From the NCBI RefSeq assembly GCF_012971745.1, contig NZ_CP048834.1, positions 4,216,001-4,280,000 of the forward strand: 64,000 nucleotides of DNA, read 5' to 3'. This DNA is from Starkeya sp. ORNL1. GTDB taxonomy: Bacteria; Pseudomonadota; Alphaproteobacteria; Rhizobiales; Xanthobacteraceae. Shown one piece after another: positions 24,084-48,149 of the stretch. The notes below the pieces were generated by a model that did no database searches, was not told where the DNA came from, and worked only from the letters and a program-made list of their open reading frames with translations. The position numbers were made by a program, and so were the translations under genes. The number at the start of each line of letters is the position of its first letter. Within the stretch, counting starts at the first letter, position 1.

Positions 24084-24098
24084 CTTGGTTTAGACAAG
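24084..24098. promoter_or_regulatory. LysR-type box (T-N11-A) before the second LysR gene
   Basis: CTTG-GTTTAGA-CAAG at 24084-24098 is a dyad containing T-N11-A, located 7 bases before the LysR ATG in an AT-rich divergent promoter region. It fits the usual autoregulatory and divergent-activation site. Confidence 0.5.
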
Positions 24099-24105
24099 CT
24101 CGAAT

Positions 24106-29237: not shown

Positions 29238-29254
29238 ATGTCACTAAGTGACAT
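29238..29254. promoter_or_regulatory. Palindromic operator ATGTCAC-TAA-GTGACAT
   Basis: A perfect 7-base dyad with a 3-base centre. Related TGACAT-like half-sites (TTGACAT, GGGACAT) lie just to the left, giving several tandem half-sites in about 40 bases. It sits between the divergent TetR and peptidase genes and is the expected size for a TetR dimer site. Confidence 0.7.
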
Positions 29255-29324
29255 ATTCTGGTGTCGCTGCCCCCGGCATAGGCGACGTCGGACGAGTGAT
29301 CGCGAAACGAGGGCCAGCCAGAGA

Positions 29325-31394
29325 ATGACCTCCATCATGTATCCGCAAACGCGCCGCGCCGACGTGACCGAAACCCATTTTGGGCACAGGATCGCCGACC
29401 CGTATCGCTGGCTGGAAAACGACGCCCGCCATGACCCGGAGGTCGCCGGATGGGCACGCCAGCAAAACGACCTGGCGCGCGCCTATCTCGACGGCCTGCC
29501 CGGTCGGGACGTTTTTCGGAAGCAATTGTCGGAGCTGTTCGACTTCGAGCAGGCCGGCGTGCCCCTGAAGCGCGGCGACCGGTACTTCCACATCAAGAGG
29601 CAAGGCCTGAAGAACCAGGGCGCGCTCCATGTAAGGATGGGCGTGGACGGGCCGGACAGGGTGTTGATCGACCCCAACGACTGGTCCGACGACGGCGCCG
29701 ACGCGATCGCGGAATGGGATGCATCACACGACGGCGCGTACGTCGCCTACGGCGTGCAGCGCGGCGGCACCGATTGGCGTGAGATCAAGGTGCTTGACGT
29801 CGATATGGGCGAGCTTTTGGGTGATGAGATCAAGTGGGCGCGCTTCGGTAACATCGCCTGGGCGAAGGACGGATCCGGCTTCTTCTACTCCCGCTACCCG
29901 GAGCCCGAATTGGGCACTGCCTCGCATGCCGGTGTGGCCAATCACGCGGTGTACCTCCACCGGTTGGGAACGCCCCAAGCCGACGACAGGCTCGTCCATG
30001 CCACGCCGGATCGCCCGCACCTGCTGCACCTCGCGGGGGCGACCGAGGACGGGCGTTACCTCGTGATCCATTCAACGCCCGGATCGTCGATGACGATGCT
30101 GAGCGTGGTGGATCTGTCGGATGGCGATTGGACGGTCCGAACCGTGGTTGGCGAGGATTTCGCAGCCGAATGGTCGGCCGTCGGCAACGACGGCACCACC
30201 CTTTTCGTCATCACCACCCAGGACGCGCCGCGCCGCAAGATCGTGACGATCGATCTCGCCGAGGCCGCTCCGAAGCCGCTCGACCTCGTCAGAGAGGACG
30301 AGGCTGTCCTCCAACACGCCTGGCTCGTCGGCCGCCGGCTCATGGCCGCCTATCTGGTCGATGCCAAGACCGCGATCCGGCGCCACGCGCTCGACGGGAC
30401 GCCGGATGGCGAGGTCGAACTTCCGGGAATCGGCAGCGCCGGCATCCGCGGCACGCTGGACGACGACGAGGCGTTCCTGGTCTTCACCAGCTTCAACGCT
30501 CCGATGACGATCTATCGCTACGACGTGGCAACGAAGGCGCGCACCGTGTGGGCGCAGCCGAAGGTCAAATTCGACCTGACGGCCATCGAGGTCGAGCAGC
30601 ACTTCTACGCTTCGAAGGACGGCACGACGATTCCGATGTTCGTGGTCCGGCGCAGGGACACGCAGGCGCCGGCACCGACGCTGCTCTACGGCTATGGCGG
30701 TTACGGCATCAGCATGACGCCGTATTACGCGCCGACGCAACTGTCCTGGGTCGCGCAGGGCGGGGTCCTGGCGATCGCCAACATCCGTGGCGGAGGCGAG
30801 TACGGCAAGGCCTGGCACGATGCCGGCCGCCTGGCGAACAAGCAGAACTCCTTCGACGACTTCATCGCTGCCGCCGAACATCTGCGGGACACGGGGATTG
30901 CCGGCACGGACGGTATCGCGATCCAGGGGGAATCGAACGGCGGACTGCTGGTAGCGGCCGTGGTGAACCAGCGCCCGGACCTGTTCGCCGCGGCCTTGCC
31001 GGGCGTCGGCGTGCTGGACCTGCTGCGCTTCCACCATTTCACCGGCGGGAGCTTTTGGACGTTCGACTTCGGGGATCCGCGGGATGAGGCGGCGTTCAAC
31101 AATCTGCTGGCGCTTTCGCCCTATCACAATGTCACATCGGGCAATGCCTATCCCGCGATCCTCGTCACGACGGCCGATGCCGATGATCGCGTCGTACCGG
31201 GGCACAGCTTCAAATACATCGCCGCCATCCAGGCTGCCGACATCGGGCCCAGGCCGCGCCTGCTTCGCGTCGAGACCCGCGCCGGTCACGGCGCCGGCAA
31301 GCCGTTGGACAAGGTCATCGCGGAGACGGCCGACATGTGGGCCTTTGCTGCCCATTGGACCGGGCTCGAGATCGGGCGGCCCGACCGGCGCTGA
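29325..31394 (+). CDS. Prolyl oligopeptidase family serine peptidase (S9A)
   Basis: A 689-residue peptidase that would cleave short proline-containing peptides. The N-terminal catalytic-domain segment (TETHFGHRIADPYRWLEND) and a central beta-propeller precede the alpha/beta-hydrolase domain with LLYGYGGYGISMTPYY, the nucleophile motif GESNGGLL (Ser537; GGSNGG is more usual), the acid TTADADDRVVPGHSF and the histidine RAGHGAGKP. No signal peptide is seen, so it is probably cytoplasmic. The ATG at 29325 is chosen because the longer frame begins inside the palindromic operator. Confidence 0.92.
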   Translation: MTSIMYPQTRRADVTETHFGHRIADPYRWLENDARHDPEVAGWARQQNDLARAYLDGLPGRDVFRKQLSELFDFEQAGVPLKRGDRYFHIKRQGLKNQGALHVRMGVDGPDRVLIDPNDWSDDGADAIAEWDASHDGAYVAYGVQRGGTDWREIKVLDVDMGELLGDEIKWARFGNIAWAKDGSGFFYSRYPEPELGTASHAGVANHAVYLHRLGTPQADDRLVHATPDRPHLLHLAGATEDGRYLVIHSTPGSSMTMLSVVDLSDGDWTVRTVVGEDFAAEWSAVGNDGTTLFVITTQDAPRRKIVTIDLAEAAPKPLDLVREDEAVLQHAWLVGRRLMAAYLVDAKTAIRRHALDGTPDGEVELPGIGSAGIRGTLDDDEAFLVFTSFNAPMTIYRYDVATKARTVWAQPKVKFDLTAIEVEQHFYASKDGTTIPMFVVRRRDTQAPAPTLLYGYGGYGISMTPYYAPTQLSWVAQGGVLAIANIRGGGEYGKAWHDAGRLANKQNSFDDFIAAAEHLRDTGIAGTDGIAIQGESNGGLLVAAVVNQRPDLFAAALPGVGVLDLLRFHHFTGGSFWTFDFGDPRDEAAFNNLLALSPYHNVTSGNAYPAILVTTADADDRVVPGHSFKYIAAIQAADIGPRPRLLRVETRAGHGAGKPLDKVIAETADMWAFAAHWTGLEIGRPDRR

Positions 31395-31411: not shown

Positions 31412-32422
31412 TCAAAGAGACCAGGCGCCGTTGCGGTGCTTTGCCATTTTCTTGAGGGTTGTTTGTTCGCGGAACCACTCGCGTAAAGGTTTCGCCGGCA
31501 TTCCGCCCCAGCGTTCGCCGGCCGGCACATTCCGCATGAGCCGAGAGGCCGCGGCCAGCTGAGCGCCCCGGCCAATGTGCAGATGGCCCGCAATGGCGCT
31601 CTGGCCTCCCACCGCAACGCCGTCCTCCAGCACTGTCGAGCCTGCGATCCCGACCTGGGCAACAATCACGCAGTGGCGTCCGATCCGCACATTGTGGGCA
31701 ATCTGAACGAGGTTATCGACCTTCGTCCCCTCACCGATGATGGTGTCCCGGCCGCTACCGCGATCGACCGTGGTGTTCGCGCCGATCTCCACGTCGTTTC
31801 CGATCGCGACACGGCCAAGCTGCGGCACCTTCACATGGCCTGACGCGCTCAGCGCGAACCCGAAACCGTCCTGGCCGATGCGAACGCCGGGATGGATGAT
31901 GACCCGATCCCCCATTCCGGAGTGCACGATGGTGGCGCCGGCGCCGATGGAGCAATCCTGGCCGATCACCACGTCCGGTCCCAGCACCACATGGGCGCCA
32001 AGCGTCGTGCCGGCTCCGACGATGACCCGCTCTCCGATGACGACGCCGGGATCGAGCACCACGCCCGCTCCAATCTGAGCTGTGGGATGGACGAAACATC
32101 CGGTCGTGACGTCGGCCTGGCCCAGGACAGGCTTGGGCCGCAACGTCTCGGGGTGCAGCCGAGTGAGCAGCTTGGCGTAAGCCAAGTGAGGATCCCGGAC
32201 AACGATGGCGACAGTGCCGGACGGAACCATGTGGGCGAAGCGATCGGCGACGATGCATGCGCCGGCCGAGGTGGTGCGCAAGGATTCCGCGTGGCCCGCA
32301 TGATCCATGTAAGCCACATGCCAGGACTCGGCCGTCTCCAGGCTTGCTCCACCACGCAGTCGCGCGCCGGGATCGGCGGACGCCGGAAGCGAAGATCCCA
32401 CCTCTTCCGCGAGCTCGGCCAA
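31412..32422 (-). CDS. LpxD-type UDP-3-O-acylglucosamine N-acyltransferase paralogue
   Basis: A 336-residue left-handed beta-helix acyltransferase. An N-terminal uridine-binding-like domain (about residues 1-100) is followed by many hexapeptide repeats ([40 protein letters not shown]) and the LpxD-like catalytic histidine region ([37 protein letters not shown]). The canonical lpxD sits with bamA, fabZ and lpxA, none of which is here, so this is a second copy with its own role. The frame opens with TTG at 32422 after an upstream TGA. It may N-acylate a sugar in the biosynthetic locus that follows. Confidence 0.8.
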
Positions 32423-33258: not shown

Positions 33259-33963
33259 TCAGCGCTCGCCAAATACGGGGAACGACTTCCACTTGATCTC
33301 GGCATACGCGCTGGAACTTGCCAGAGCGGCGATGTGCTCGGGACCCGACATCAGGTCCCGCACATGCCATGTGCGCGCTGCCCCCCTCAATCCGCGAATG
33401 GTCACTGCGGAGCTTTCGGCGCCGACGAGCTTCGCGACGGTAAAGCTGCTCAAGGGCAGATCGAGGCCGAGCCCGGTCGCCTTGGCGACCGCTTCCTTTC
33501 GCGTCCAGAAAGCGAGGAACGTGCTCACAGTCCGATCGGAGCGAAGCAGTGCCTCACGTTCCGTTTCCGCGAAGAACTCGCGCACGATCTCGGTCCACCG
33601 AGGCACGTCCCGGACCATCTCGATGTCGATCCCGAGTTCGCTGCGTGTGCTGAGGGCAAGCAGTCCCAGCGCTCCGGAATGCGAGACATTGAAGAACAGG
33701 CCGGGCCGATCGACGAGACGCGGCTTGCCTTGGGCGCTCAGCTCAAGCGCGACGCGCGCGGGCGCGATGCCGAGCCGACAAGCGAGTATCTGCCGCAAGG
33801 CCATCCGACGCGACAGGAAGCGCCGGCGCAGCAGCGGCGTGGCGAAACTGTCCGCTCGGCTGATCTCGCCGAGGTCGAGAACCTCGGTTGCCGTCGCGAG
33901 GTCGATCTCGTCCAACGCGATGCGCCAGATCTCGATTGCCTCGCCCCGGTCGCGCGCATCCAC
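33259..33963 (-). CDS. 4'-phosphopantetheinyl transferase, Sfp type
   Basis: A 234-residue enzyme that moves phosphopantetheine from CoA onto a serine of carrier proteins. Motifs of the Sfp/Gsp group are GKPRLVDRPGLFFNVSHSG, LGIDIEMVRDVP (the magnesium-binding D-I-E) and FLAFWTRKEAVAKATGLGLD (W-x-x-K-E-A). The GTG start at 33963 is four bases past the stop of the giant condensation protein gene, so the two are co-transcribed. It would activate Ser1095 of that protein and Ser39 of the free carrier protein upstream. Confidence 0.92.
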   Translation of the reverse strand: MDARDRGEAIEIWRIALDEIDLATATEVLDLGEISRADSFATPLLRRRFLSRRMALRQILACRLGIAPARVALELSAQGKPRLVDRPGLFFNVSHSGALGLLALSTRSELGIDIEMVRDVPRWTEIVREFFAETEREALLRSDRTVSTFLAFWTRKEAVAKATGLGLDLPLSSFTVAKLVGAESSAVTIRGLRGAARTWHVRDLMSGPEHIAALASSSAYAEIKWKSFPVFGER

Positions 33964-33967
33964 CTCG

Positions 33968-36900
33968 TCAGGCCGCCCGCAGGAAGCGTGCCCCGCTTGC
34001 GAGCACGTTCGACACGCGGCGCGCCACGGCGCGCCAGCGCTTCATCTCGAGTTGCTCGCCCTGCAGGACCGCGAGGAGGTCTCTGGCCAGTGTCAGCGTA
34101 TAGGGCTCGAAGCCCATCTGGACGTGATTGCAGCGGACGTTGCGGATGCTGATCGCGCCGCTGGTATAGGCGCGCCAGCGATACTCCATCCCCTTCTGGC
34201 GCGTGGCCCGGAACAGGAGGATCGGCACGTCGCTCGCGGGCGGATTGTAACGCCGGAACAAATGCACGCAATTGGCGTAGACCGCGATCTTCCGCTTCGC
34301 CTCGGGCACCGAATATTCCGGTGGCGCGACGCCCATGCGCTGCGCCGTGGCGATGACCTGCTCGATGGTGACGGTGCGGTCGCTGACCCGCCGCTTGCCC
34401 GGAAGCTCGAACTTGCGCTCGATCGTCTCAAGGTCGGCGGCGAGGATGCGCATCACCTCGTCGAAGCTGAGATCGGGCTCGTCGCGCCCATAAGGGGTCG
34501 GCGTGTCCATGAAGGCGAGCAGGCCGATCTCCTCGCCGGCCTGCCGCAGCCGATGCGCGATATCATAGGCGATGACACCGCCGAACGACCAGCCGATGAG
34601 GTGATATGGCCCCTTGGGCTGGACCCGGCGCATCTCGTCGAGATAGGCGGCCGCCATCTCTTCGACATTCGCCGCCATCGGTTCGTTGGGCGCGAGCCCC
34701 ATGGCCTCGAAGGCGTAGACCGGCTGGCCGGGGCCGAGCGCCTTGGCGAGCCGCATGAAGGACACCGCGTCGCCATTGGCCGGATGCACGCAGAACAGCG
34801 GCGGGCCGCCGTCGCCGGTCTGCAGCGGCACCACTGCGGCATAGCCGCCGCCGGCGCCGCTTTGCTGGGCCACCAGTTCAACCAGTTCGGCGAGCTGCGG
34901 GCGTTCGAACAGTGCGCGTATCGGCAAGGCAATGCCGTATTGCGAGCGGATCCGCGCGACGAACTGCACGGCGAGGAGCGAGTGGACACCGATCTCGAAG
35001 AAATTGTCGTCTATGCCGACGCGCTCGACGCCGAGTATCTCGGCGAGGGTGGTCGCGAGTTCCGCCTCCAGCTTGGTCCGCGGCGCGCGATAGGCCGTGG
35101 CGCTGGTGCGCTCGACCGTACTGGCGGCGCGCGCGGCCTGCTCCACGGCATCGACGCGATTGAGCTGGCGCGCGATCAGTTCCCAGGTCTCGGGGGCGAG
35201 CGCGCCGGGCTTGGAACTGGCGGCAGGCACTTCGGTGAGGTCGACCTCTTCAGCCGGCGCCTCTTCCGGCCGGAAGCGGGCGTCCGCCGCCTGCTGCGCG
35301 GGCGCAGCGAACGTCACCGCTCCATCCGGCGCGACGATCGCGCCCGGGAGCGCGGCGAGGAACTGGCGCACCGGCTGGTTGCGCGGCAGGTTCAGCGCGT
35401 CGACGCGAACCGTGTCGAGGCCATGGGCCAGTGCGAAGCGTCCCAGCTCGACGATCATGGCATGCTCGACGCCGCGGCCAAGCACGCGGCAGCTCATGAG
35501 GAAGGCGTCGGTGACCAGGGTGGTCCCGTCGCGGTGCGCCAGCATCAGCCCGACGAGGCCGTAGTCGCCGAAGCGATCGGCCACCGATATCGCCCGCACC
35601 AGCGCATCGCCGCGCGCGGCGGCGAATTCCGCGGCGGTGCGCCAGATGCCATTGATGTTGAACTGGTTGGTGCGCTCGGTCAGCTGCTGAAGCCGCTTCA
35701 GCTCGTCCTCGCGGGGCTCCGCCGTGCGGATCTCAAGCTGCAATTCCTCGATGAAGCGCGCATAGTCCCCCGCCCCGCGCTTGAGTTCGGAACGACGCGC
35801 ATTCTCCTTGTAGAACGTGGTCCGCTTGCGGTCCTCCGCGGTCGCCACTGCGACGTCGAGCGGCCAGAGATGGTGCGGATCGCTGCCCTCGGGCGACAGG
35901 AAATCGACGCCGACAGCGATGATCGACGGGCAGTTGGCGCGGACTTCGGCGATCTCGACCGGGTTGTCGTCGAGGAAGACGAAGCTGTCCTCGCCAAGCG
36001 AAAGCTCGGCGGCCATCGAGCGCAGATTGGCCGATTTCGGCTGCCAGTTGATGCGATGCACGACGACATGTTCCGGCTTGAGCAGCATGTCGTCTCGCTG
36101 CTGCAGCACGGCGAGCACGTCGGCCTCGATGTTCTTGCTGCACAGACCGATTAGGACGCCGGCATTGGCGGCCTCGACCAGCCGTGCCTGCAAGGCGAGG
36201 TGCCGCGCCTCCAGGCTGATGCCCTCGACACCGTCCTCGCCGACGACCCCGCCCCACAGCGTGTTGTCGCAATCGACGACGATGACCTTGATCGGGGAAC
36301 GCAGCATGAGGTGCAGGCGGCGCGCCACGCAGGTGGCCAGCGCGGAGTAGCCTGCCGCGCTGTAGGGAACATGGCCGAGCCGATCGCTTTCCGGATCCTG
36401 CTCGGCGGCGGTTGGATAGAGCCGGCGCACCTCGGCATGATCGATGAAGCCGACATTGGCGAGCGTGGCGAGCCCCTGGCGCAGCACGGTCTCGATCTCG
36501 GTCTGCAATTGCGCCTGGACGCCGCCGCGATCCCACGCCTGCGATGGCGGGCAGATGACGACGACACAGGGAACTCGCGAGGCCGCGGCGGCGGCCTTCA
36601 GCGCGGAGACAAAAGAGCTGGCGATTTCGCGCAGGAAGGGAGCGGCATCCGATCCCGGATCGTCGCCGCTGCGGAAGCGCAGCCAGTCTTCGATGCGGAG
36701 CAGGACGACGTTCCCCTTCGCCGCCCCCGAACGGGTCGCGCTCGCCGGATCGATCAGCTCCTGGAAGACCTGGTTATAGCCGGCAAATGACAGGCTCGCG
36801 CCGAAGCCGAGCCGTGCCGTCCAATAGGCGAGGGTGGTGCCGATCGGCTCGGCGGTGAAACTCGAGACAATATGCACGGCAGGAGTCTCCGCCGTGGGCA

Positions 36901-38263
36901 TGCCGCGAACCTGCCGACGCTCTGTCGCCGTGAAGAGATCGAGGTCGGCGGTCCTGCTCGCGGGGTCGTCGCAGAAGCGCGCGAACAATCGCTTAAAGCG
37001 ATCCAGCAGCGTCTCCGCGCGTGCCCGATCGAGATAGGCCGGATTGAAGGCGAACTCGACCAGCACCGGGCGATGCCGGTTGTTCTCGGACACATAGATG
37101 GCGAGAGGATTGGCTTCGGGGCCGCGCAGGATGGCGGGCTCGATGCTCACCCCTGCCATGCTGAAATCGAAGTTCGTCAGTTCGGCCGGGATGTAGGAGA
37201 GGAAGATATCGAACACGCCGCGACGGCCTTCCCGGCCGACCCCGAGCGCGCGGCAGATCTCGTCGACCGGCGCGCGCTGGAACGGATAGTCGCGGCCGAG
37301 CTGTTCGCCCACATGCGTGGCGATGGCTCCGAGGTCCATCTGCGGCTCGATCCGGATCGGCACCGGCATCGCGCCGTTGTACATTCCGACCTTGCTGCGC
37401 GCAGAGCGCCCGCGACCCGGCACGGCGACGCCGAGAACGACGCTTTCCGACTGCGTCAGGTCTCCGGCCAGCGCGGCCGTGAGCCCGAGCAGCGCCGGCA
37501 GCGGACGTACGTTCACGGCGTCGCAAGCCGCAAGAAACCGGGCATAATCCTCCCGCGGCAATTCCCATGGCAACAGCACCGCGGGCGCTCGGGTAACGGC
37601 GTCGGCGCTGACGGCGTGCGGCGGGCGCGAGGCGAAGACCGGTTCGGGAAGCGGAGACAGCCGCTCCTTCCAATGCTCGAGATCGCGGGGGGCGCGAGCC
37701 GAGCCGCGATACTGGGTGTCCTCGTCGGCGAAGTCGAAATAGGCGGAGCCGCTCGGCAACGCCTCCTCATTGTCGTCGACGAGCGCGTCATAGGCCTGCG
37801 CGATCATCCGCGTGAGGATGGGAATGGACAGCCCGTCGACGATGAGATGATGGCTGCGCAGCAGGCTGTACCAGATGTCCTCGTCGATCTTGGCGAGCGT
37901 CATGCTGAACAGCGGGTTGTCGCCGAGCGGCAGCGGCGTCGCGAACAGGCTCTCGGCCATGGCGAGGAACGCCGTCTCGCCATCGGGCTCATTCGAGAAA
38001 TCGATATAATGGACGGGCGGGGAAAATCCTCGCTCCAGCCGCTGCCGCGGTTCGAACGGGTCGACGTGAAGCATCAGCGCTTCGTTGCGCGCCATGACGA
38101 TGCCGACAGCCTGGCGGAACAGTTCGGGAGATATGCTGCGATCGATACGTGTGTAGCCGCCTATCTGATAGCTCGCGGCATTGCCGAAGGACTGCAGCTC
38201 CAGCCAAATCGACCGCTGACGCGATGTGAGTTCCACCCACCCGTCTCGCGACAAGGCATCCAT
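33968..38263 (-). CDS. Multidomain condensation / FkbH-type HAD / carrier / thioesterase protein (NRPS-like, no adenylation domain)
   Basis: A 1431-residue assembly-line enzyme. Order: condensation domain (about 10-440) with active site H138-H-x3-D143-G; an SGNH-like linker (about 470-650, FAGYNQVFQELIDPAS); FkbH-type HAD domain (about 655-800) with D664-C-D666-N-T668 and FLDDNPVE; a GNAT-like domain (about 810-960, TERTNQFNINGIW); carrier domain with phosphopantetheine site Ser1095 (FFEIGVHSLLA); and a type I thioesterase with GWSFGG (Ser1226) and His1380. FkbH proteins load glyceryl units from 1,3-bisphosphoglycerate onto carriers, so this protein may make and release a glyceryl-derived or similar amide or ester. 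No adenylation or ketosynthase domain exists nearby. The ATG at 38263 has AGGGG 7 bases upstream. Confidence 0.9.
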   Translation of the reverse strand: MDALSRDGWVELTSRQRSIWLELQSFGNAASYQIGGYTRIDRSISPELFRQAVGIVMARNEALMLHVDPFEPRQRLERGFSPPVHYIDFSNEPDGETAFLAMAESLFATPLPLGDNPLFSMTLAKIDEDIWYSLLRSHHLIVDGLSIPILTRMIAQAYDALVDDNEEALPSGSAYFDFADEDTQYRGSARAPRDLEHWKERLSPLPEPVFASRPPHAVSADAVTRAPAVLLPWELPREDYARFLAACDAVNVRPLPALLGLTAALAGDLTQSESVVLGVAVPGRGRSARSKVGMYNGAMPVPIRIEPQMDLGAIATHVGEQLGRDYPFQRAPVDEICRALGVGREGRRGVFDIFLSYIPAELTNFDFSMAGVSIEPAILRGPEANPLAIYVSENNRHRPVLVEFAFNPAYLDRARAETLLDRFKRLFARFCDDPASRTADLDLFTATERRQVRGMPTAETPAVHIVSSFTAEPIGTTLAYWTARLGFGASLSFAGYNQVFQELIDPASATRSGAAKGNVVLLRIEDWLRFRSGDDPGSDAAPFLREIASSFVSALKAAAAASRVPCVVVICPPSQAWDRGGVQAQLQTEIETVLRQGLATLANVGFIDHAEVRRLYPTAAEQDPESDRLGHVPYSAAGYSALATCVARRLHLMLRSPIKVIVVDCDNTLWGGVVGEDGVEGISLEARHLALQARLVEAANAGVLIGLCSKNIEADVLAVLQQRDDMLLKPEHVVVHRINWQPKSANLRSMAAELSLGEDSFVFLDDNPVEIAEVRANCPSIIAVGVDFLSPEGSDPHHLWPLDVAVATAEDRKRTTFYKENARRSELKRGAGDYARFIEELQLEIRTAEPREDELKRLQQLTERTNQFNINGIWRTAAEFAAARGDALVRAISVADRFGDYGLVGLMLAHRDGTTLVTDAFLMSCRVLGRGVEHAMIVELGRFALAHGLDTVRVDALNLPRNQPVRQFLAALPGAIVAPDGAVTFAAPAQQAADARFRPEEAPAEEVDLTEVPAASSKPGALAPETWELIARQLNRVDAVEQAARAASTVERTSATAYRAPRTKLEAELATTLAEILGVERVGIDDNFFEIGVHSLLAVQFVARIRSQYGIALPIRALFERPQLAELVELVAQQSGAGGGYAAVVPLQTGDGGPPLFCVHPANGDAVSFMRLAKALGPGQPVYAFEAMGLAPNEPMAANVEEMAAAYLDEMRRVQPKGPYHLIGWSFGGVIAYDIAHRLRQAGEEIGLLAFMDTPTPYGRDEPDLSFDEVMRILAADLETIERKFELPGKRRVSDRTVTIEQVIATAQRMGVAPPEYSVPEAKRKIAVYANCVHLFRRYNPPASDVPILLFRATRQKGMEYRWRAYTSGAISIRNVRCNHVQMGFEPYTLTLARDLLAVLQGEQLEMKRWRAVARRVSNVLASGARFLRAA

Positions 38264-38431
38264 TGATTCGCCCCTGACTCAAGCCGCGGTCCGCGCCCGC
38301 AAAAACACGGCGCCGCCGGCTGCCTTCTAGTTTTAATGCACCGTCCGAATCCTTGGCTTCGATCGAGCAGCGGCCAGGCCTTCAGCAAGGACACGCGTCG
38401 AAACGACAGGGTCGGAACCCATTCGGCACTG

Positions 38432-38719
38432 CTAGGCTGCGGGCTTCGCCAAGGCTCCGCCCCTGGCGACTCCATCAAGGAGCGCCAGTACTTCATTGAT
38501 CAATGCTCCGACGGTCACGCCGGTGTTGTTCAGGGGGCCATCATTCGGGATTTCGATGCCGAATCGGCTCTCGAGCTTGAAGATCGTCTCAATAAGATCG
38601 AGCGAGGATATGCCGAGATCCGCGATCGGTGTCTCGGCATCGATCGACTTCGGATCCAGGCCAGTCTCCCCGGCAACGACGGCAATGATCTCATCAATAC
38701 GAGGATCATCTTTCCGCAT
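38432..38719 (-). CDS. Free-standing acyl carrier protein
   Basis: A 95-residue carrier protein with the phosphopantetheine site in LGISSLDLIETIFKLESRFG (Ser39), preceded by the first helix and followed by acidic helices as in ACPs. The ATG at 38719 has AGGGA 7 bases upstream. It is the first gene of an operon with the condensation/FkbH protein and the phosphopantetheinyl transferase. It probably carries the acyl partner that the condensation domain joins to the unit held on the large protein, or receives the FkbH-derived glyceryl group. Confidence 0.9.
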   Translation of the reverse strand: MRKDDPRIDEIIAVVAGETGLDPKSIDAETPIADLGISSLDLIETIFKLESRFGIEIPNDGPLNNTGVTVGALINEVLALLDGVARGGALAKPAA

Positions 38720-38993
38720 AACTGTTCCCTAACGTCAGATCAACGTTTTTAGAGAATAATTTTTGCGGAAATACCAAGTGGGAATCTCACCACTTGTTTA
38801 TCCCGCCCCCACAACATAATGCAATGCACAATCGCCGTTGTCTACACTGTCAGGCCGCTGTAACCCGCACTGGCTAACGATCCTTGCGAAAAAGGTGCCA
38901 TGGTGCCGCAAATGAACTGTTGCGTTGCAAACCGAACTCGGTCGATGCACTATGCCGCATGATTACTTGCCGAGGGGGCAGGCAGGCACTGTG

Positions 38994-40217
38994 ATGAGGC
39001 CCTACACAAAGAAATTCCTGGTGCTGATGCTGCTTGGCGGCGTCGGCTGGAGCATCGTGTCCAGTACTCAGATTGGATGGAGTGCTATTGCTCCGAAGAG
39101 TCCAGGTATTGTCGATGACCTGCGCAGCGCCAGCGGGGCGGGCGCAACCCCTGTAATCGCCGCTTTCGCCGAGAAGCGGACCGTGCCGGTCTTCCGCACC
39201 GGGCTCGGTTCGGTCCAGGCGTTCAATTCGGTCACCGTCACCTCGCGCGTGGATGGACAGCTCGATCAGCTGCTGTTCGTCGAAGGGCAGGAGGTCAAGG
39301 CCGGCGAGGTGCTCGCCGTCATAGATCCGCGCCCCTATCAGGCAGCGGTACGACAGGCCGAGGCGCAGGTCCGTGTCAGCGAGGCGAAGATCGTCGCCGC
39401 CAAGGCCGACCTCGGACGGCTCGAGGAATTGCAGAAGTCCGGTGTCGGCTCGCGGCAGGCGCTCGACGGCAAGCGCGCGGATGTCGGCCAGCTCCAGGCG
39501 ACCATCGAGGCCGCGCAGGCCGAGGCGGAGCGCGCGCGGCTCGACCTCGAATATACGAGCATCACATCGCCGATCGACGGTCGCGCCGGGCTGCGGCAGG
39601 TCGATACCGGAAACATGATCATGGCGATCGACCGCAAGGTGATCGTCGTGGTCACCCAGCTCCAGCCGATCTCGGTGGTGTTCTCGCTTCCCCAGGAAGA
39701 TCGGGTGCAGGTGTCCGAGCAGCTCGCGAAAAGCCGGGGACTGCCGGTCTATGCCTTTGCCCGCGACAGCCGGACCCAGCTCGCCGAGGGCACGCTCACT
39801 ATGGTCGACAACCAGATCGACCCGAAGACCGGCACGTTCAAGCTGAAGGCGACATTCGCCAATACGAACAATGCTTTGTGGCCCGGTCAGTTCGTCACCG
39901 TGCGCCTTCTCCTGATGCAGCAGCCGGACGCCATCGTGGTGCCGGCGCCGGCGGTGCAGCGCGGGCCGCAGGGCACCTATGTCTATGTCATCGGCGCCGA
40001 CGACAGGGTCGCCATGCGCGCAGTCGATGTCGGGCAGGTGCAGGACGGGGTGGCGACGCTGGAGCAGGGCCTGTCGCGCGGCGAGCGCATCGTCGTCGAT
40101 GGCCAGTACAAGCTGCAGCCCGGCGACCGCGTCTCGATCAGCGGCGCGGAGCGGCCGGGCGGCGACGGCCAGCCCTTCTATCCGGGGTCGGAGCGTAGCG
40201 CGGCGCCGCCTTCATGA
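38994..40217 (+). CDS. mdtA: RND efflux periplasmic adaptor (MdtA-like)
   Basis: A 407-residue membrane fusion protein. The N-terminal hydrophobic segment (KKFLVLMLLGGVGWSIVSS) anchors or exports it. Then come the lipoyl half-motif TSRVDGQLDQLLFVEGQEVKAGEVLAVIDPRPYQ, a coiled coil rich in AEAQVRVSEAKIVAAKADL, the second half SPIDGRAGLRQVDTGNM and the barrel domains. It links the inner-membrane pump to an outer-membrane channel, whose gene is not in this window. Starts at 38925 and 38952 are possible. The four-base overlap with the first pump gene shows coupling. Confidence 0.9.
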   Translation: MRPYTKKFLVLMLLGGVGWSIVSSTQIGWSAIAPKSPGIVDDLRSASGAGATPVIAAFAEKRTVPVFRTGLGSVQAFNSVTVTSRVDGQLDQLLFVEGQEVKAGEVLAVIDPRPYQAAVRQAEAQVRVSEAKIVAAKADLGRLEELQKSGVGSRQALDGKRADVGQLQATIEAAQAEAERARLDLEYTSITSPIDGRAGLRQVDTGNMIMAIDRKVIVVVTQLQPISVVFSLPQEDRVQVSEQLAKSRGLPVYAFARDSRTQLAEGTLTMVDNQIDPKTGTFKLKATFANTNNALWPGQFVTVRLLLMQQPDAIVVPAPAVQRGPQGTYVYVIGADDRVAMRAVDVGQVQDGVATLEQGLSRGERIVVDGQYKLQPGDRVSISGAERPGGDGQPFYPGSERSAAPPS

Positions 40218-43200
40218 GCCTCTCCGAGCCCTTCATCCATCGACCGATCGCCACATCGCTCCTCACCATCGGCATCGTGTTGCTGGGATTGCTCGGATAC
40301 AGGGCGCTGCCGATCTCGGCGCTCCCCACCGTCGATTTCCCCACGATCGAGGTGACGACCCTTCTCACCGGTGCCAGCCCCGATGTCGTCGCCTCCTCGG
40401 TGACGACGCCGCTCGAGGCGCAGCTCGGCCAGATACCCGGGCTCGCCGCGATCAGTTCGGTAAGCTCGTTCGGCCGCAGCGCCATCACGCTGCGCTTCAC
40501 CCTCGGCCGCAACATCGATTCGGCCGCGCAGGACGTCCAGGCGGCGATCAGCGCATCGGCGGGAACGCTGCCGGCCGAGCTGCCCAATCCACCGGTCTTC
40601 AACAAGGTGAACCCCGCCGATGCACCGATCATGGTGCTGGCGCTCACCTCCCAATCGCTGCCGCTCTCGCGCGTCAACGATTTCGCCGAGACCGTGCTGG
40701 CGCAGAAGCTGTCGCAGGTCGAGGGCGTCGGGCTGGTCTCGATCCAGGGCGGGCAGAAGCGCGCCGTGCGCATCCAGGTCGTGCCCGGCGCGCTCGCAGC
40801 GCTCAATCTCGGGCTGGAGGATCTCCGCGCGATCGTGGCGCAGTTCAACGTCAATGCGCCGAAGGGCAATCTCGACGGGCGACGCCAGTCCTACACCATC
40901 GCCGCCAACGACCAGCTGCTCTCCGCCGAGACCTATGGCGATATCATCATCGCCTATCGCGCCGGGGCGCCGGTGCGGCTGAAGGACGTCGCGACCGTCA
41001 CCGACAGTGTCGAGAATGTGCGCCTCGCCGGCTGGCAGAACGAGCGACCCGCGATCCTGGTGGATGTGAAGCGCCAGCCTTCCGCCAACATCATCGAGAC
41101 GGTGGAGCGCATCGAGGCGATCCTGCCCCAGCTGCGCGGCGCCGTGCCGGCCAGCGTCAAGATCGACATATTGAGCGACCGTACCGAGACCATCCGCGCA
41201 TCGGTGGCCGAAGTCGAGTTCACGCTGGTGCTGTCCGTGGCGCTCGTGGTGCTGGTGATCTTCCTTTATCTGCGCAAGGCGTGGGCGACGATCATCCCGA
41301 GCATCGTGCTGCCGGTGTCGCTGATCGGCACCTTCGGCGTGATGTACGCGGCCGGTTTCAGCATCAACAATCTTTCGCTGATGGCGCTGACCATCGCCGC
41401 CGGCTTTGTCGTCGACGACGCCATCGTCATGATCGAGAACATCGTCCGCCACATCGAGAACGGCGCCTCGCCGACGCAAGCCGCGGTGAAGGGCGCGCGC
41501 GAGATCACCTTCACCATCATCTCGCTCACCTTCTCGCTGGTCGCCGTGTTCATTCCGCTGCTGCTGATGAGCGGCGTGGTCGGCCGGCTGTTCCGCGAGT
41601 TCGCGGTCACGCTCACCGTCGCCGTCATCGTCTCCGGCATCGTGTCGCTGACGCTGACGCCGATGATGTGCGCGCAGTTCCTGAAGCGCGAGCCGGAGAA
41701 GCCGCGCGAGCCGTCCTGGTACGACTGGCTGTTCGACCGGCAGATCGCGCTCTACGAGAAGAGCCTCGAATGGGTGCTGGCGCGCCGGCGGCTGATGCTG
41801 GGCATCACCATCGGGGCGATGGTGGCGACCGGGGTGCTCTACCTCATCGTGCCGAAAGGGTTCCTGCCGCAGCAGGACACCGGCATGATCATCGGGGTAA
41901 CCGATGCGCCGCCCGACATCTCGTTCGGTGCCATGGTCGCGGCCCAGCAGCGCATGGCAAGCGCGATTCTCGCCGACAAGGATGTGGCGAGCCTCGTGAG
42001 CTTCGTCGGTTCGGGCTCCGTCAATCTGACGGCGAACAGCGGCCAGTTATATATCAACCTCAAGCCGCGGGACGAGCGTGACGCCAGTGCCGAAGAGGTC
42101 ATGGCGCGTATCCGCGACACTGTTGCCCCCATTGCCGGCATCTCGCTCTTCATGCAGGCGGCGCAGGACATCCAGATCGACAACCGCGTCAGCCGTACCC
42201 AATACCAATATGTGCTGCAGGATCCCGACACGGCAGAGCTGGCGGACTGGTCGACGAAGCTCGCGGACGCGCTGAGGCAGCGTCCGGAACTGGCCGATCT
42301 CGCCACCGACAATAATAGCGGCGGCCTGCAGACGCGGATGACGATCTTCCGCGACAAGGCGGCCCAGCTGGGGGTGTCGATCCACTCCATCGTCAATACG
42401 CTGTACGACGCCTTCGGGCAGCGGCAGATCTCGACGATCTACACCCAGCTCAACCAGTACCATGTGATTCTGGAGCTCGATCCGCGGTTCCAGACCGATC
42501 CCTCCGCCTTGCGCTCGCTCTATGTGCAGTCGGACGGCGGGACACCGGTGCTGCTGAGCACCGTCGCCGATTTCCACACCGAGACCGCACCACTGACGAT
42601 CAGCCATCTCGGGCGCTTCCCGGTCGTCACACTGTCCTTCAACGTGCCGCCCGACTACTCGCTGGGCGCCGCCATCGACGCCATTTCCGAGACCGAACGC
42701 GCCATCGGCCTGCCGCCGGCGATCGCCACCGCCTTCACGGGCAGCGCCGCGGAGTTCCGCAGCTCGCTCGCAGGCCAGCCCTTGTTGATCCTGGCAGCGA
42801 TCGTCGTGGTCTATATCGTGCTCGGGGTGCTCTATGAGAGCTTCATCCACCCGATCACCATCCTCTCCACCTTGCCATCGGCGGGCCTCGGCTCGCTCGC
42901 CGCGCTCTATCTGCTCGGCCGCGAGCTCGACCTGATCTCGCTGATCGGCATCATCCTGCTGATCGGCATCGTGAAGAAGAACGCGATCATCATGATCGAC
43001 TTCGCGCGCGAGGCCGAGCGCTCGTCCGGCATGTCGCCGGAACAGTCGATCCGGCAGGCCTGCCTGCTGCGCTTCCGGCCGATCATGATGACAACCATGG
43101 CGGCGCTGCTTGGCGCCTTGCCCCTCGCCGTGGCGCACGGCGCCGGCGCCGAGCTGCGCCAGCCGCTCGGCATCGCCATCGTTGGTGGCCTGATCATCTC

Positions 43201-43384
43201 GCAGTTTCTGACGCTCTACACCACGCCGGTCATCTACCTGCTGTTCAGCCGCTTCACGTTCGAAGGCAAGGCCGCAAGCGTGCCCTCGACGGTCGCGCCC
43301 TCGAGCCCACCCGCGCAAGCGCCTATGCCCCGACTGCCGCGCATCTCCGACACCGAGCTGCCGCGCTTTACCGGGGAGGGATAG
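40214..43384 (+). CDS. mdtB: RND multidrug efflux permease, first subunit (MdtB-like)
   Basis: A 1056-residue proton-driven pump with 12 membrane helices and two large periplasmic loops. MdtB-like features are YRALPISALPTVDFPTIEVTTLLTGASPDV near the N-terminus, FVVDDAIVMIENIVRHIENG in helix 4 (the proton-relay aspartates) and GIVKKNAIIMIDFAREAERS in helix 10. It should form a heterotrimer with the next gene product, as in MdtBC. It overlaps mdtA by four bases. Confidence 0.92.
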   Translation: MSLSEPFIHRPIATSLLTIGIVLLGLLGYRALPISALPTVDFPTIEVTTLLTGASPDVVASSVTTPLEAQLGQIPGLAAISSVSSFGRSAITLRFTLGRNIDSAAQDVQAAISASAGTLPAELPNPPVFNKVNPADAPIMVLALTSQSLPLSRVNDFAETVLAQKLSQVEGVGLVSIQGGQKRAVRIQVVPGALAALNLGLEDLRAIVAQFNVNAPKGNLDGRRQSYTIAANDQLLSAETYGDIIIAYRAGAPVRLKDVATVTDSVENVRLAGWQNERPAILVDVKRQPSANIIETVERIEAILPQLRGAVPASVKIDILSDRTETIRASVAEVEFTLVLSVALVVLVIFLYLRKAWATIIPSIVLPVSLIGTFGVMYAAGFSINNLSLMALTIAAGFVVDDAIVMIENIVRHIENGASPTQAAVKGAREITFTIISLTFSLVAVFIPLLLMSGVVGRLFREFAVTLTVAVIVSGIVSLTLTPMMCAQFLKREPEKPREPSWYDWLFDRQIALYEKSLEWVLARRRLMLGITIGAMVATGVLYLIVPKGFLPQQDTGMIIGVTDAPPDISFGAMVAAQQRMASAILADKDVASLVSFVGSGSVNLTANSGQLYINLKPRDERDASAEEVMARIRDTVAPIAGISLFMQAAQDIQIDNRVSRTQYQYVLQDPDTAELADWSTKLADALRQRPELADLATDNNSGGLQTRMTIFRDKAAQLGVSIHSIVNTLYDAFGQRQISTIYTQLNQYHVILELDPRFQTDPSALRSLYVQSDGGTPVLLSTVADFHTETAPLTISHLGRFPVVTLSFNVPPDYSLGAAIDAISETERAIGLPPAIATAFTGSAAEFRSSLAGQPLLILAAIVVVYIVLGVLYESFIHPITILSTLPSAGLGSLAALYLLGRELDLISLIGIILLIGIVKKNAIIMIDFAREAERSSGMSPEQSIRQACLLRFRPIMMTTMAALLGALPLAVAHGAGAELRQPLGIAIVGGLIISQFLTLYTTPVIYLLFSRFTFEGKAASVPSTVAPSSPPAQAPMPRLPRISDTELPRFTGEG

Positions 43385-43388
43385 CCAG

Positions 43389-46300
43389 GTGACCGGCCTC
43401 GCGCGCCTCTTCGCCGGCAGACCGGTCGGAAGCATGCTGATCGCCATCGGCATCATGCTGATCGGCGCTGCCGCCTACCGGCAACTCGCCATTGCCACTC
43501 TGCCGGCGATCGACGTGCCGACCATCGTCGTCTCCGCGCAGCTGCCCGGCGCGAGCCCGGAGACCATGGCGAGTGCCGTCGCGACGCCCCTGGAGCGTCG
43601 GCTCGGCCGCATCGCCTCGATCACCGAACTGACCTCGATCAACACGCTCGGCAACACCCAGATCACCCTGCAGTTCGCGCCGGAGCGCAACGTCGACGGG
43701 GCGGCGGTCGACGTGCAGGCCGCCATCAGCGCGGCGGGCGACGAACTGCCGAAGGACATGCCGAGCCGGCCGGTGTTCAAGAAGATCAATCCGATCCTGA
43801 TTCCAGCCGTCTTCCTCTCCATCCGCTGCGATACGCTGCCGCCGGATGAGGTGATCAAGTATGTGAATGGCGTCATCGTCGACAAGCTCGCGCAGCTCGA
43901 AGGCGTCGGCAATGTCGTCGTCCAGGGCGCAGCCAAGGCGGCGGTCCGGGTGCGCATGAACCCGGCGGCGATGGCCTCGGTCGGCATCGGCCTCGACGAT
44001 GTCCGCGCCGCGATCGTGGCTGGCAGCGTCACGCTGCCGACCGGCAGCCTCGACAATGACTATCGGTCGGAGGCCATCGTCACCGACAGCCAGCTTACCA
44101 ATGCCGCCGCCTTCTCGCGGCTCATCGTCGCCCAGCATGATGGCGCCAACGTGCGGCTCGGCGATATCGGAACCGTGGCCGACAGCGTGGTCGATACCCG
44201 CGTCGGCGGCTGGCTGAACACCGACCCGGCGATCTTCGTGTACATCCAGCGCAAGGCCGGCGCCAATATCGTCGCCACGGTGGACCGCGTGCGCGAGGCG
44301 CTGCCGCAGATCCGTCGCTGGCTGCCACCCTCGATCCATGTCGATATCATTGCCGACCGCACCGTCACCATACGCGGCACGCTGCACGATGCGCAGCTCA
44401 CCTTCCTGGCGACGACCTTGCTGGTGATCGGAACCATCCTGCTGTTCCTGCGCGATACGCGGGCGACGCTGATTGCCGGCATGTCGATCCCGGTGGCGCT
44501 CGCCGGCACCTTCATCGTGATGTACTTCCTCGACTACAGCCTCGATCTCATTTCCCTGACCGCGCTCACCGTCGCCATCGCCTTCGTGATCGACGATTCC
44601 ATCGTGATGGTGGAGAACATTGCGCGCTTCCGCGAGCAGGGGTTTGGCCGGCTGGAGGCGACGGTGAAGGGCGCCGCCCAGATCGGCTTCACCATCGTCG
44701 CCATCACGCTGTCGCTGGTCGCGGCCTTCATCCCGTTCCTGATGTTTCCCGGGGTGATCGGGGTGATCATGCGGGAATTCTCGGTGACGCTCTGCGTTTC
44801 CATCCTCATTTCGGCCGTGGTCTCGCTGACTCTTACCCCTGCGCTCGCCGCACGGTTCCTGAAGGTGCGCCACGCCGACGACAGCGAGCCCCGGGAGGGC
44901 AGGCTGGGCCGCTGGATCCAGTGGGGCTTCGACCGCATCCTCGATGGCTATGCCCGCAGCCTGCGCCACGCGCTCGACCATCGGCGCTTCATGCTGTTCC
45001 TGACCGCACTGTGCGCGGTCGGCACCATCGCACTCTACGCCATCATGCCCAGCGGCTTCATGCCGACGCAGGACACCGGCGTCATCATCGGCATCACCGA
45101 GGCGCCGCCCGACACCTCCTTCGCCGCCATGCGCCTGCGCCAGATCGCCGTCGCCAAGGCGATCCGCGAGCATCCCGCGGTGGAGAACGTCACCTCTTCG
45201 ATCGGCACAACGTCTGTCGATACCGGCGGCGGCGCGGCAAGCGTCAGCACCGGCCGCTTCTACATCATGCTGAAGCCACGCTCCGAGCGTGGTGCCGTCA
45301 CCGAGATCATCGACGAATTGCGCGAGGCGCTCTCCGCGCTGCCGAGCACCCGCACCTATCTGCAGCCGGTCGAGGATCTCAATGTCGGAGCCCGCGAGGG
45401 CAAGGGCCAGTACCAGTTCACCTTGCAGGACGAGAACTGGGAGGAACTCGATCACTGGTTCGACATATTGTTCACCCGGTTCCGCACATTGCCGGAGCTG
45501 CGCGATGTCGGCGCCGACCTGCAGAATGGCGGGCTCCAGGTCATTCTCGACATTGACCGCGACCGCGCCGCCCAGCTCGGCATCTCGCCGCAGGTGATCG
45601 ACGACACGCTTTACAGCGCATTCGGCCAGCGCCGCGTCTCGACCATCTACGCGACGACCGACCAGTATTATGTCGTGCTGGAAGTGGACGCCAATCTGCA
45701 GGCCGAGATCGACACGCTGCAGAGCGTGTATGTAAAGGCGCCGGACGGCAGCCAGATTCCGCTGCGGGCGGTGACCAAGACCAGCGAAGGCGAGACCGCT
45801 TTGGTGATCCCCCACCAGGGCGAGTTCCCCTCCATCACCATCAGCTTCAACCTCGCGCCCGGCGTCGCCCTCAATCAGGCCATTGCGAAGATCGAGGACA
45901 CGGTGGCGGAGCTGCGCCCGCCGGGCACGCTGCGTACCAGCTTCGAGGGCAAGGCCGGCGCCTTCAACTCGTCATCGGGCTCCGAGCCCTATCTGCTGCT
46001 CGCCGCGATCTTCACCATCTATATCGTGCTGGGCGTGCTCTATGAGAGCTATGTCCACCCCTTCACCATTCTCTCGACCATTCCATCCGCCGGCCTTGGC
46101 GCCCTGCTGGCGCTGTTGCTGAGCGGACAGCAATTGTCGCTGATCGCCTTCATCGGCATCATCCTCCTGGTCGGCATCGTGAAGAAGAACGCGATCCTGA
46201 TGATCGACTTCGCGCTGTCAGCGGAACGCAGCGAAGGGCTTTCCAGTGCGGACGCCATCTACAAGGCGTGCGTGCTGCGCTTCCGTCCGATCGTCATGAC

Positions 46301-46526
46301 CAATCTCGCGGCCATTGTCGGCGCGCTGCCGCTGGCGCTCGGCACCGGCCCCGGCTACGAGATCAGGCAACCGCTCGGCTATGCGATCATCGGCGGGCTG
46401 ATGGTGTCAGGCGTCCTCAACCTCTACACCACGCCGGTAATCTATCTCTATATGGACTGGTTCCGTCGGCGCCGGGCGCGCAAGACCGAGCCGGCTCAGG
46501 ACACGCTCGCGACCGAGGCCGGCTGA
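43389..46526 (+). CDS. mdtC: RND multidrug efflux permease, second subunit (MdtC-like)
   Basis: A 1045-residue second RND pump subunit starting 4 bases after mdtB. It has the family N-terminus (AYRQLAIATLPAIDVPTIVV), FVIDDSIVMVENIARFREQG in helix 4 and GIVKKNAILMIDFALSAERS in helix 10. The tandem arrangement of two complete permeases after one adaptor is diagnostic of MdtABC-type pumps. The last 31 bases overlap the end of the convergent glycosyltransferase gene. Its placement beside the biosynthetic genes suggests it exports their product. Confidence 0.92.
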   Translation: MTGLARLFAGRPVGSMLIAIGIMLIGAAAYRQLAIATLPAIDVPTIVVSAQLPGASPETMASAVATPLERRLGRIASITELTSINTLGNTQITLQFAPERNVDGAAVDVQAAISAAGDELPKDMPSRPVFKKINPILIPAVFLSIRCDTLPPDEVIKYVNGVIVDKLAQLEGVGNVVVQGAAKAAVRVRMNPAAMASVGIGLDDVRAAIVAGSVTLPTGSLDNDYRSEAIVTDSQLTNAAAFSRLIVAQHDGANVRLGDIGTVADSVVDTRVGGWLNTDPAIFVYIQRKAGANIVATVDRVREALPQIRRWLPPSIHVDIIADRTVTIRGTLHDAQLTFLATTLLVIGTILLFLRDTRATLIAGMSIPVALAGTFIVMYFLDYSLDLISLTALTVAIAFVIDDSIVMVENIARFREQGFGRLEATVKGAAQIGFTIVAITLSLVAAFIPFLMFPGVIGVIMREFSVTLCVSILISAVVSLTLTPALAARFLKVRHADDSEPREGRLGRWIQWGFDRILDGYARSLRHALDHRRFMLFLTALCAVGTIALYAIMPSGFMPTQDTGVIIGITEAPPDTSFAAMRLRQIAVAKAIREHPAVENVTSSIGTTSVDTGGGAASVSTGRFYIMLKPRSERGAVTEIIDELREALSALPSTRTYLQPVEDLNVGAREGKGQYQFTLQDENWEELDHWFDILFTRFRTLPELRDVGADLQNGGLQVILDIDRDRAAQLGISPQVIDDTLYSAFGQRRVSTIYATTDQYYVVLEVDANLQAEIDTLQSVYVKAPDGSQIPLRAVTKTSEGETALVIPHQGEFPSITISFNLAPGVALNQAIAKIEDTVAELRPPGTLRTSFEGKAGAFNSSSGSEPYLLLAAIFTIYIVLGVLYESYVHPFTILSTIPSAGLGALLALLLSGQQLSLIAFIGIILLVGIVKKNAILMIDFALSAERSEGLSSADAIYKACVLRFRPIVMTNLAAIVGALPLALGTGPGYEIRQPLGYAIIGGLMVSGVLNLYTTPVIYLYMDWFRRRRARKTEPAQDTLATEAG

Positions 46527-47809: not shown

Positions 47810-48149
47810 ATATTTCTTCCATTTTTGAGAAGATCGGCGACCTCTTATCTTCAATCGATAATGTGCCGTTGTCTCCTCTACGTATACCCTGCCGTGCCGA
47901 CATTATCCGCGCAGGCAAAAAAACTGGATGTAATTTAATACCGTCTATGCAAGTGCGCGTTTAATCGACCTTGCGGGGCGCAAGAAATTCCCGCCAGCCG
48001 TCGCGTGGTGGATCGGCTCGACCTGATCCTAATAATAATCGGGCAATATCTGGCAGTGGCGTCCAAGCAATTCGCCAGGAGCCAGTGTTTCGGGCAGTCG
48101 CCGCGCTCCCTCAGCCGGAGACGTTCGCAGGCGACTTGGGACTACGCGA
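47810..48149. other. AT-rich intergenic stretch
   Basis: 340 bases with no gene and a lower GC content than the surroundings. It holds the promoter of the glycosyltransferase (leftward) and the end of the alpha/beta hydrolase gene. No terminator or repeat is evident. Confidence 0.5.

What the first reader, a model, noticed from the sequence alone, without database searches (positions are those of the whole stretch)
33259..38719. Condensation-FkbH-carrier-thioesterase protein with its own carrier protein and phosphopantetheinyl transferase, but no adenylation domain
One 1431-residue protein joins a condensation domain (HHLIVDG), a complete FkbH/HAD-IIIC module (DCDNT), a carrier (Ser1095) and a thioesterase (Ser1226, His1380). 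A free carrier protein and a Sfp-type activating enzyme are in the same operon. Known condensation domains use an amino acid loaded by an adenylation domain, and FkbH enzymes normally load glyceryl units for polyketide pathways. Joining the two in one chain with release suggests an amide or ester made from an acyl carrier and a glyceryl-type unit. I do not know of a described system with this order.
Basis: partly seen in the sequence, partly recalled or inferred. Interest (0 to 1): 0.85.

Follow-up and report, generated by a model that had tools for sequence, protein, structure and literature searches.

The report
EntF-like synthetase loading glycerate, not serine
A bacterium carries a small gene set whose central enzyme resembles the one that finishes the iron-scavenger enterobactin, except that the part that would activate an amino acid is replaced by one expected to load glycerate from sugar breakdown, so it probably makes and exports a fatty, perhaps sugar-bearing, ester of glyceric acid.

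Summary
In detail: window 33968-38263 (-) encodes 1431 aa, condensation (C) - FkbH - carrier (T) - thioesterase (TE), with a free ACP and a PPTase. Key residues are intact here and in 16 of 16 close homologues (one lacks only the first His of the C motif). It is the genome's only condensation domain; none of 12 AMP-binding matches lies in the window.

"No described system" is only partly right. C-FkbH-T modules are known from vioprolide and corramycin (FAAL-ACP-C-FkbH-T); vioprolide's makes a glycerate ester. I did not find the one-module form with TE described. Its C domain belongs to the EntF/starter branch; 12 of 18 other C-FkbH C domains, put in the same tree, do not (joint origin rejected, p-AU 7e-8). 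Its TE does not group with FkbH-T-TE proteins (p-AU 0.0019). It looks like an EntF-type synthetase whose adenylation domain was exchanged for FkbH.

The interval is too short: an MdtABC-like pump and a glycosyltransferase belong to the block (33259-47854), shared by 2 of 30 same-genus genomes.

Best reading: acyl-ACP plus glyceryl-T gives an O-acylglycerate ester, released, probably glycosylated, exported. Product chemistry is inferred.

The parts
33259..33963 (-). Sfp/HetI-type 4'-phosphopantetheinyl transferase, 234 aa, start 4 bases after the synthetase stop
   Evidence: Pfam ACPS 58.2 bits; NCBIfam HetI model 115.8 bits, below its cut-off of 370; 72% identical orthologue at the same place in L003
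33968..38263 (-). C-FkbH-T-TE synthetase, 1431 aa: C 9-450, FkbH about 465-975 (N-terminal extension, HAD, GNAT-like), T 1067-1130, TE 1153-1382
   Evidence: Pfam and NCBIfam; AlphaFold models of C (pLDDT 90.0) and FkbH (86.4) with Foldseek matches; 83% orthologue in L003
38432..38719 (-). free acyl carrier protein, 95 aa, carrier Ser39 by motif, probable donor carrier
   Evidence: Pfam PP-binding 44.6 bits; all 10 NCBIfam hits are acyl carrier protein models, best 36.5 bits, each under its cut-off; Ser39; 79% orthologue in L003
38925..40217 (+). MdtA/MuxA-like RND periplasmic adaptor, divergent from the ACP (TTG start uncertain)
   Evidence: NCBIfam RND_mfp 270.3 bits over cut-off 94.9; MdtA/MuxA model 334.5, below 391; 91% orthologue in L003
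40214..43384 (+). MdtB/MuxB-like RND permease 1
   Evidence: NCBIfam RND_permease_2 1272.7 bits over cut-off 1250; 94% orthologue only in G021 of 30 genus genomes; next best 55%
43389..46526 (+). MdtB/MdtC-like RND permease 2
   Evidence: Pfam ACR_tran 931 bits; NCBIfam RND_permease_2 1088.2, below 1250; 91% orthologue in L003
46496..47854 (-). UDP-glycosyltransferase-type (family 1-like) glycosyltransferase, up to 452 aa, convergent with RND permease 2 (start codon uncertain)
   Evidence: Pfam EryCIII-like_C 60.3, UDPGT 44.0, Glyco_transf_28 43.9 bits; nearest solved: sterol 3-beta-glucosyltransferase, GtfA, GtfB; 68-69% orthologue in G021, next best in genus 39%

Best explanation
An EntF-type terminal synthetase whose adenylation domain has been exchanged for an FkbH unit, in a seven-gene block that makes and exports an acyl-glycerate lipid. 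Steps: (1) the PPTase charges the free ACP (Ser39) and T (Ser1095); (2) FkbH takes a phosphoglycerate, by family knowledge D-1,3-bisphosphoglycerate, removes the phosphate (D664/D666) and places glyceryl on T, probably through Cys708; (3) the ACP brings an acyl chain, most likely from fatty acid synthesis; (4) the starter/EntF-type C domain (His139) joins the acyl group to a glyceryl hydroxyl as an ester; (5) the TE (Ser1226-Asp1253-His1380) releases it; (6) the glycosyltransferase probably adds a sugar and the MdtABC-like pump exports the product. Shown by computation: gene content, domain order, intact motifs, single C domain in the genome, conserved block, branch of the C domain, and that the TE does not group with those of FkbH-T-TE proteins. 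Inferred from characterised relatives: 1, 2, 4. Inferred only from gene company: 3, the mode of 5, and 6.
For: Domains and motifs. Characterised C-FkbH-T modules: glycerate ester with a fatty acyl donor in vioprolide (passages). C domain nearest in sequence to starter C of RzmA, then EntF and CDA C1 (7C1 entries as RzmA starter C, passages); the 21 best Foldseek rows are RzmA, CDA C1 or EntF; it lies on that branch with SH-aLRT 98 (FastTree). TE on the EntF side (0.934; weak 62/91), and held with FkbH-T-TE TEs rejected (p-AU 0.0019). Same-genus C-A-T-TE proteins sit in ent clusters (five loci read for ORFs; Pfam of five genes of one of them, L138, and of the carrier of L140). Seven genes kept together in G000 and G021 at 68-94% identity while the flanks differ; full synthetase in 2 of 30 genus genomes, close RND1 and glycosyltransferase orthologues in the same two. 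The ACP matches acyl carrier protein models.
Against: No acyl-loading enzyme was seen in the block, so the donor is unknown; the ent clusters of the genus also use a free carrier (L140), so an aryl donor is not excluded, though the two carriers align over 36 residues only. Context is known for two genomes of one genus. PMC12304814 (passage) says most tested ester-forming C domains, VioA's among them, group with the elongation (LCL) type, so a starter-type C making an ester lacks precedent in what I saw. Foldseek TM-scores do not separate the types (starter about 0.70-0.82, elongation and others about 0.68-0.81), and a profile of mixed lineages ranked elongation C chains (PvdL) first. The glycosyltransferase is convergent, not co-transcribed, and could act elsewhere; pumps of the MdtABC type can be general (recalled). 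EntF kinship of the TE is weak in the careful tree, where P0024 and P0040, whose C domains are of the other lineage, lie on the same side.
Confidence: 0.55

Rival explanations
1. The TE works iteratively like that of EntF: acyl-glyceryl units are stored on Ser1226 and cyclised through the free glyceryl hydroxyl into a macrolactone, an oxygen counterpart of the enterobactin core.
For: C-X-T-TE plan, free carrier, PPTase and exporter parallel EntF/EntB/EntD (parallel recalled); C on the EntF/starter branch, TE on the EntF side (weak); EntF is the third solved TE protein by score. Amphi-enterobactin shows that an enterobactin-type lactone core can carry a fatty acyl group (abstract start in the listing).
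Against: TE sequence does not separate hydrolysis from cyclisation; the best solved TE matches are 7crn and 4zxh, ahead of EntF; D-glycerate has the opposite configuration to L-serine (recalled).
Confidence: 0.12
2. FkbH also loads the free ACP with glyceryl in trans, and C joins two glyceryl units; no fatty acid is involved.
For: FkbH enzymes of polyketide clusters are proposed to load free ACPs (passages in PMC7489565); no acyl-loading enzyme seen in the block.
Against: An integrated T follows FkbH directly; C groups with starter and EntF domains; the ACP resembles acyl carrier proteins, which does not by itself exclude glyceryl.
Confidence: 0.1
3. FkbH loads another small acid (such as lactyl), or the product is an amide with a soluble amine.
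For: FkbH specificity was not tested; OaaC-type C domains, kin of starter C, use ACP donors and free amines (PMC13142362 abstract and one section).
Against: OaaC stands alone, whereas here FkbH, T and TE follow in the chain; FkbH motifs are standard.
Confidence: 0.13
4. The block is a decaying or silent remnant with no present product.
For: Patchy presence: 2 of 30 genus genomes.
Against: Key motifs kept in 16 of 16 close homologues; seven genes kept at 68-94% identity between two genomes.
Confidence: 0.05

Closest known systems
Vioprolide (and corramycin) start: FAAL-ACP-C-FkbH-T
   Same: C-FkbH-T order; glycerate on FkbH's carrier and, in vioprolide, joined to a fatty acyl group by an ester-forming C domain (passages; Auerbach 2018 not read, seen only as a citation)
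   Different: There it starts a longer assembly line and has a FAAL; VioA's C is said to group with LCL types (passage). Here one module with TE, no FAAL seen, and a starter/EntF-branch C
Enterobactin synthase EntF with its free carrier and PPTase
   Same: C-X-T-TE plan with free donor carrier and PPTase (recalled); C on the same branch; the same genus carries ent clusters
   Different: X is FkbH, not an adenylation domain; no chorismate-derived aryl genes found in the window proteins scanned; carrier is ACP-like
FkbH-T-TE proteins of about 990 aa (75 of the 120 listed homologues)
   Same: FkbH, carrier and TE in one chain
   Different: No C domain; holding their TEs with the family's is rejected (p-AU 0.0019)
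C-FkbH-T-NAD-binding (reductase-like) proteins P0018-P0022
   Same: Same C lineage (support 1.0), FkbH and T, 40% identity over 79% of the query
   Different: End in a reductase-like NAD-binding domain instead of TE; the CSKN cysteine is replaced in P0018 and P0020, the two aligned
Oaa fatty-acid-amide pathway (OaaC, OaaACP)
   Same: Starter-related C using an acyl chain on a dedicated ACP (abstract, one section)
   Different: OaaC is stand-alone and uses free amines

Membership tests
FkbH glyceryl transferase/phosphatase | TIGR01686 match over cut-off with DxDxT and CSKN motifs | tested here: met
   280.9 bits over 146.65; DCDNT 664-668, Cys708
FkbH glyceryl transferase/phosphatase | loads glyceryl from a phosphoglycerate | not testable with these tools
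   needs enzyme assay
Vioprolide-type ester-forming C-FkbH-T module | order C-FkbH-T | tested here: met
Vioprolide-type ester-forming C-FkbH-T module | C domain of the elongation-type lineage seen in the other C-FkbH modules | tested here: not met
   family C and 12 of the 18 other C-FkbH C domains on opposite sides of a branch with SH-aLRT 98; joint clade p-AU 7.5e-8. VioA itself was not in the tree
Starter/EntF-type condensation domain | nearest to starter C in sequence and tree; intact HHxxxDG | tested here: met
   (by E-value, not by TM-score)
EntF | C-A-T-TE with adenylation domain | tested here: not met
   no AMP-binding match in the protein; FkbH instead
EntF | TE of EntF lineage that cyclises | tested here: inconclusive
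   TE on EntF side 62/91, 0.934; activity not testable
MdtABC/MuxABC tripartite exporter | adaptor plus two tandem RND permeases | tested here: met
   equivalog cut-offs for MdtA, MdtB and MdtC not reached, so kind only, not the same protein

The most novel reading that the evidence does not exclude
An enterobactin-like machine rewired to central metabolism: an EntF-type synthetase that swapped adenylation for glyceryl loading and whose TE still iterates, giving a macrocyclic oligo(acyl-glycerate) lactone that is glycosylated and pumped out, i.e. a new class of exported glycolipid built from a glycolytic phosphoglycerate and acyl-ACP without an adenylation step for the monomer.
Probability: 0.1. 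Interest if true: 0.88.

Novelty: new variant of a known kind. Interest (0 to 1): 0.6.

Why it matters
If right, C-FkbH synthetases arose more than once, and one line did so by exchanging the adenylation domain in an EntF-type frame: a natural example of replacing amino-acid activation with glyceryl loading, useful as a template for engineering. The compact block (carrier, synthetase, PPTase, pump, glycosyltransferase) predicts an exported acyl-glycerate lipid that I did not find described, and it could be tested in one heterologous construct. It also gives a foothold on the many FkbH-T-TE and the C-FkbH-T-reductase proteins seen.

Tried and rejected
LpxD-like gene (31412-32422) and the S9 peptidase (29238-31394) as pathway members: rejected, no match in L003, L143 or L144. 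ORF 46545-47009 (+) looked conserved (75%) but is antisense to the glycosyltransferase. A trans adenylation enzyme in the locus: none in the window. Plasmid origin: of 13 plasmid records with a match none covers 80% of the query. Wider sampling found stand-alone full-length copies only in G000 and G021, own genome counted: 2 of 101 relatives, 1 of 397 of the order, 1 of 398 of the phylum (7 others have C-FkbH stretches), 2 of 391 of the family, 1 of 385 of the class; the samples overlap. Genome-contig scan: 85 confirmed, 80 kept, one stand-alone full-length locus (L003). Reading HHxxxDA as inactivation: rejected, the second His and the Asp stay in all 16; P0016 has Gln for the first His. My first TE profile contained reductase proteins and mislabelled P0018-P0022 as TE-bearing; rebuilt without them.

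Rows dropped before counts: the trees used 11 and 8 family members and hand-picked others. Asked for but without a row of sufficient length: L133, L136, P0099 and L011; L009 and L043. Of 18 other C-FkbH C domains (L007 and L116 are one contig) 12 went into. One search scored 7991 candidates and lists 120 of 532 hits.
Full report
Observation. The minus strand at 33968-38263 encodes 1431 aa with Condensation, FkbH, PP-binding and Thioesterase domains, all over curated cut-offs. A 95-aa ACP (38432-38719) lies upstream and a 234-aa PPTase (33259-33963) starts 4 bases downstream. Residues expected for activity are present: H138-H139-D143, D664/D666, C708, S1095, S1226-D1253-H1380, and Ser39 of the ACP; that these are the catalytic ones is recalled family knowledge. 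AlphaFold models of the C part (pLDDT 90.0, pTM 0.89) and of the FkbH part (86.4, 0.69) are usable; the FkbH model matches 3slr, a HAD-type phosphatase protein, and GNAT acyltransferases.

Only one in the genome. The genome is one contig of 6.29 Mb. A Condensation search finds this domain only; PP-binding matches number 7; 12 AMP-binding matches all lie outside the window. So no amino-acid adenylation partner is in the locus; one elsewhere in the genome is not excluded.

In a second genome of the genus (G021; its contig has the length and place of the Xanthobacteraceae MAG contig of L003) the order glycosyltransferase - RND2 - RND1 - adaptor - ACP - synthetase - PPTase is the same with 68, 91, 94, 91, 79, 83 and 72% identity, whereas the other window genes tested beyond the PPTase and beyond the glycosyltransferase have no orthologue at the matching place. 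Of 30 genus genomes, the full synthetase, the close RND1 (94%, next best 55%) and the close glycosyltransferase (69%, next best 39%) occur in the same two. I take 33259-47854 as the unit. The pump is MdtABC/MuxABC-like; the glycosyltransferase is nearest among solved proteins to sterol 3-beta-glucosyltransferase, GtfA and GtfB.

Relatives. Among 120 listed homologues (of 532), 16 share the whole order at 42-93% identity over 93-100% of the query (P0002-P0017), with the key residues kept. P0024, P0025 and P0028 have the order with a C domain of the other lineage; P0040 has two carriers; P0018-P0022 end in a reductase-like domain; 75 score as FkbH-T-TE without C. C-FkbH-T also occurs inside larger synthetases, for example twice in tandem in Paenibacillus methanolicus (L006), and near the end of one of Clostridium zeae (L011), where the TE match is partial.

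Ancestry. The C domain's best solved relatives are RzmA starter C (97 bits), EntF (76.9), CDA C1 (74.3) and ObiF1 (59.1); the others of the 33 score 54.5 or less. That the 7C1 entries are RzmA starter C is confirmed by PMC7804268 passages. The 21 best Foldseek rows by E-value are RzmA, CDA C1 or EntF, but TM-scores do not separate them from other C domains, and a profile built from mixed lineages put PvdL chains first. In a FastTree of 251 C domains the family (P0001-P0022 and L003) is one clade (1.0) within 46 C domains of which 45 start within the first 119 residues of their frame and none is from the 18 other C-FkbH modules (the N-terminal share outside was not counted). In an IQ-TREE quick tree of 41 rows, 8 family rows, 3 ent rows and 7 N-terminal rows are one side of a branch with SH-aLRT 98; 12 other C-FkbH C domains, 7 internal and 4 N-terminal rows are on the other; forcing the family and these 12 together is rejected (p-AU 7.5e-8). 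The TE forms one clade (100/99), lies on the ent side only weakly (62/91), together with P0024 and P0040, and forcing it with FkbH-T-TE TEs is rejected (p-AU 0.0019). The groups were named before these two runs but after the FastTree result, which weakens the p-values somewhat. Same-genus C-A-T-TE proteins are in enterobactin-type clusters: locus L138 has isochorismatase, AMP-ligase, C-A-T-TE, SDR and chorismate-binding genes, and L140 a free carrier (only these six proteins were scanned with Pfam). The simplest reading is an EntF-type frame with FkbH in the adenylation place.

Mechanism. FkbH enzymes are described as loading glyceryl from 1,3-bisphosphoglycerate on carriers (passages); the corramycin paper says the vioprolide FkbH was shown to activate D-3-phosphoglycerate (passage), so the exact substrate is open. 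The C-FkbH-T of vioprolide makes an ester of a fatty acyl group and glycerate. The free ACP matches acyl carrier protein models and the C lies with starters, so an acyl-ACP donor is likely. Release, glycosylation and export follow from gene content only.

Known and new. C-FkbH-T is known. A self-contained C-FkbH-T-TE with free ACP and PPTase, and its separate origin on the EntF/starter branch, did not turn up in ten searches of open-access papers, of which I opened only part of what was listed; subscription papers are mostly not held, so this is no proof of absence. I class it as a new variant of a known kind.

Noticed in passing
window 31412-32422 (-): LpxD-type acyltransferase (TIGR01853 332.6 bits, over cut-off 242.5) next to the block but absent at that place in G021; whether it is a second lpxD copy was not tested.
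   Followed up: partly
G000:C1:4743181-4744767 and 4744820-4745011 (L002): A second FkbH (613 aa frame) with a 79-aa carrier frame beside it, outside the window: looks like a classical FkbH plus ACP pair.
   Followed up: no
P0018-P0022: C-FkbH-T-reductase-like proteins in which the CSKN cysteine is replaced (seen in P0018 and P0020) while another Cys sits two residues earlier; a reductive release would give an acyl-glyceraldehyde (inference).
   Followed up: no
L006: Paenibacillus methanolicus synthetase frame of 6413 aa with two C-FkbH-T modules in tandem.
   Followed up: no
H1, plasmid NZ_CP042998.1 20188-23160: Aquisphaera giovannonii plasmid encodes a protein matching residues 445-1400 (FkbH-T-TE) annotated only as HAD-IIIC family phosphatase.
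   Followed up: no
L137-L141: Enterobactin-type clusters in the window's genus; the window's own genome has no second condensation domain, hence no EntF.
   Followed up: partly
window 20015-25026: Two Rieske oxygenase alpha subunits, a reductase-type flavoprotein and a LysR regulator, like an aromatic-degradation locus.
   Followed up: no
window 33971-34054 (-), residues 1404-1431 of the synthetase: Basic tail after the TE that might bind membrane; similar in P0002-P0006.
   Followed up: no
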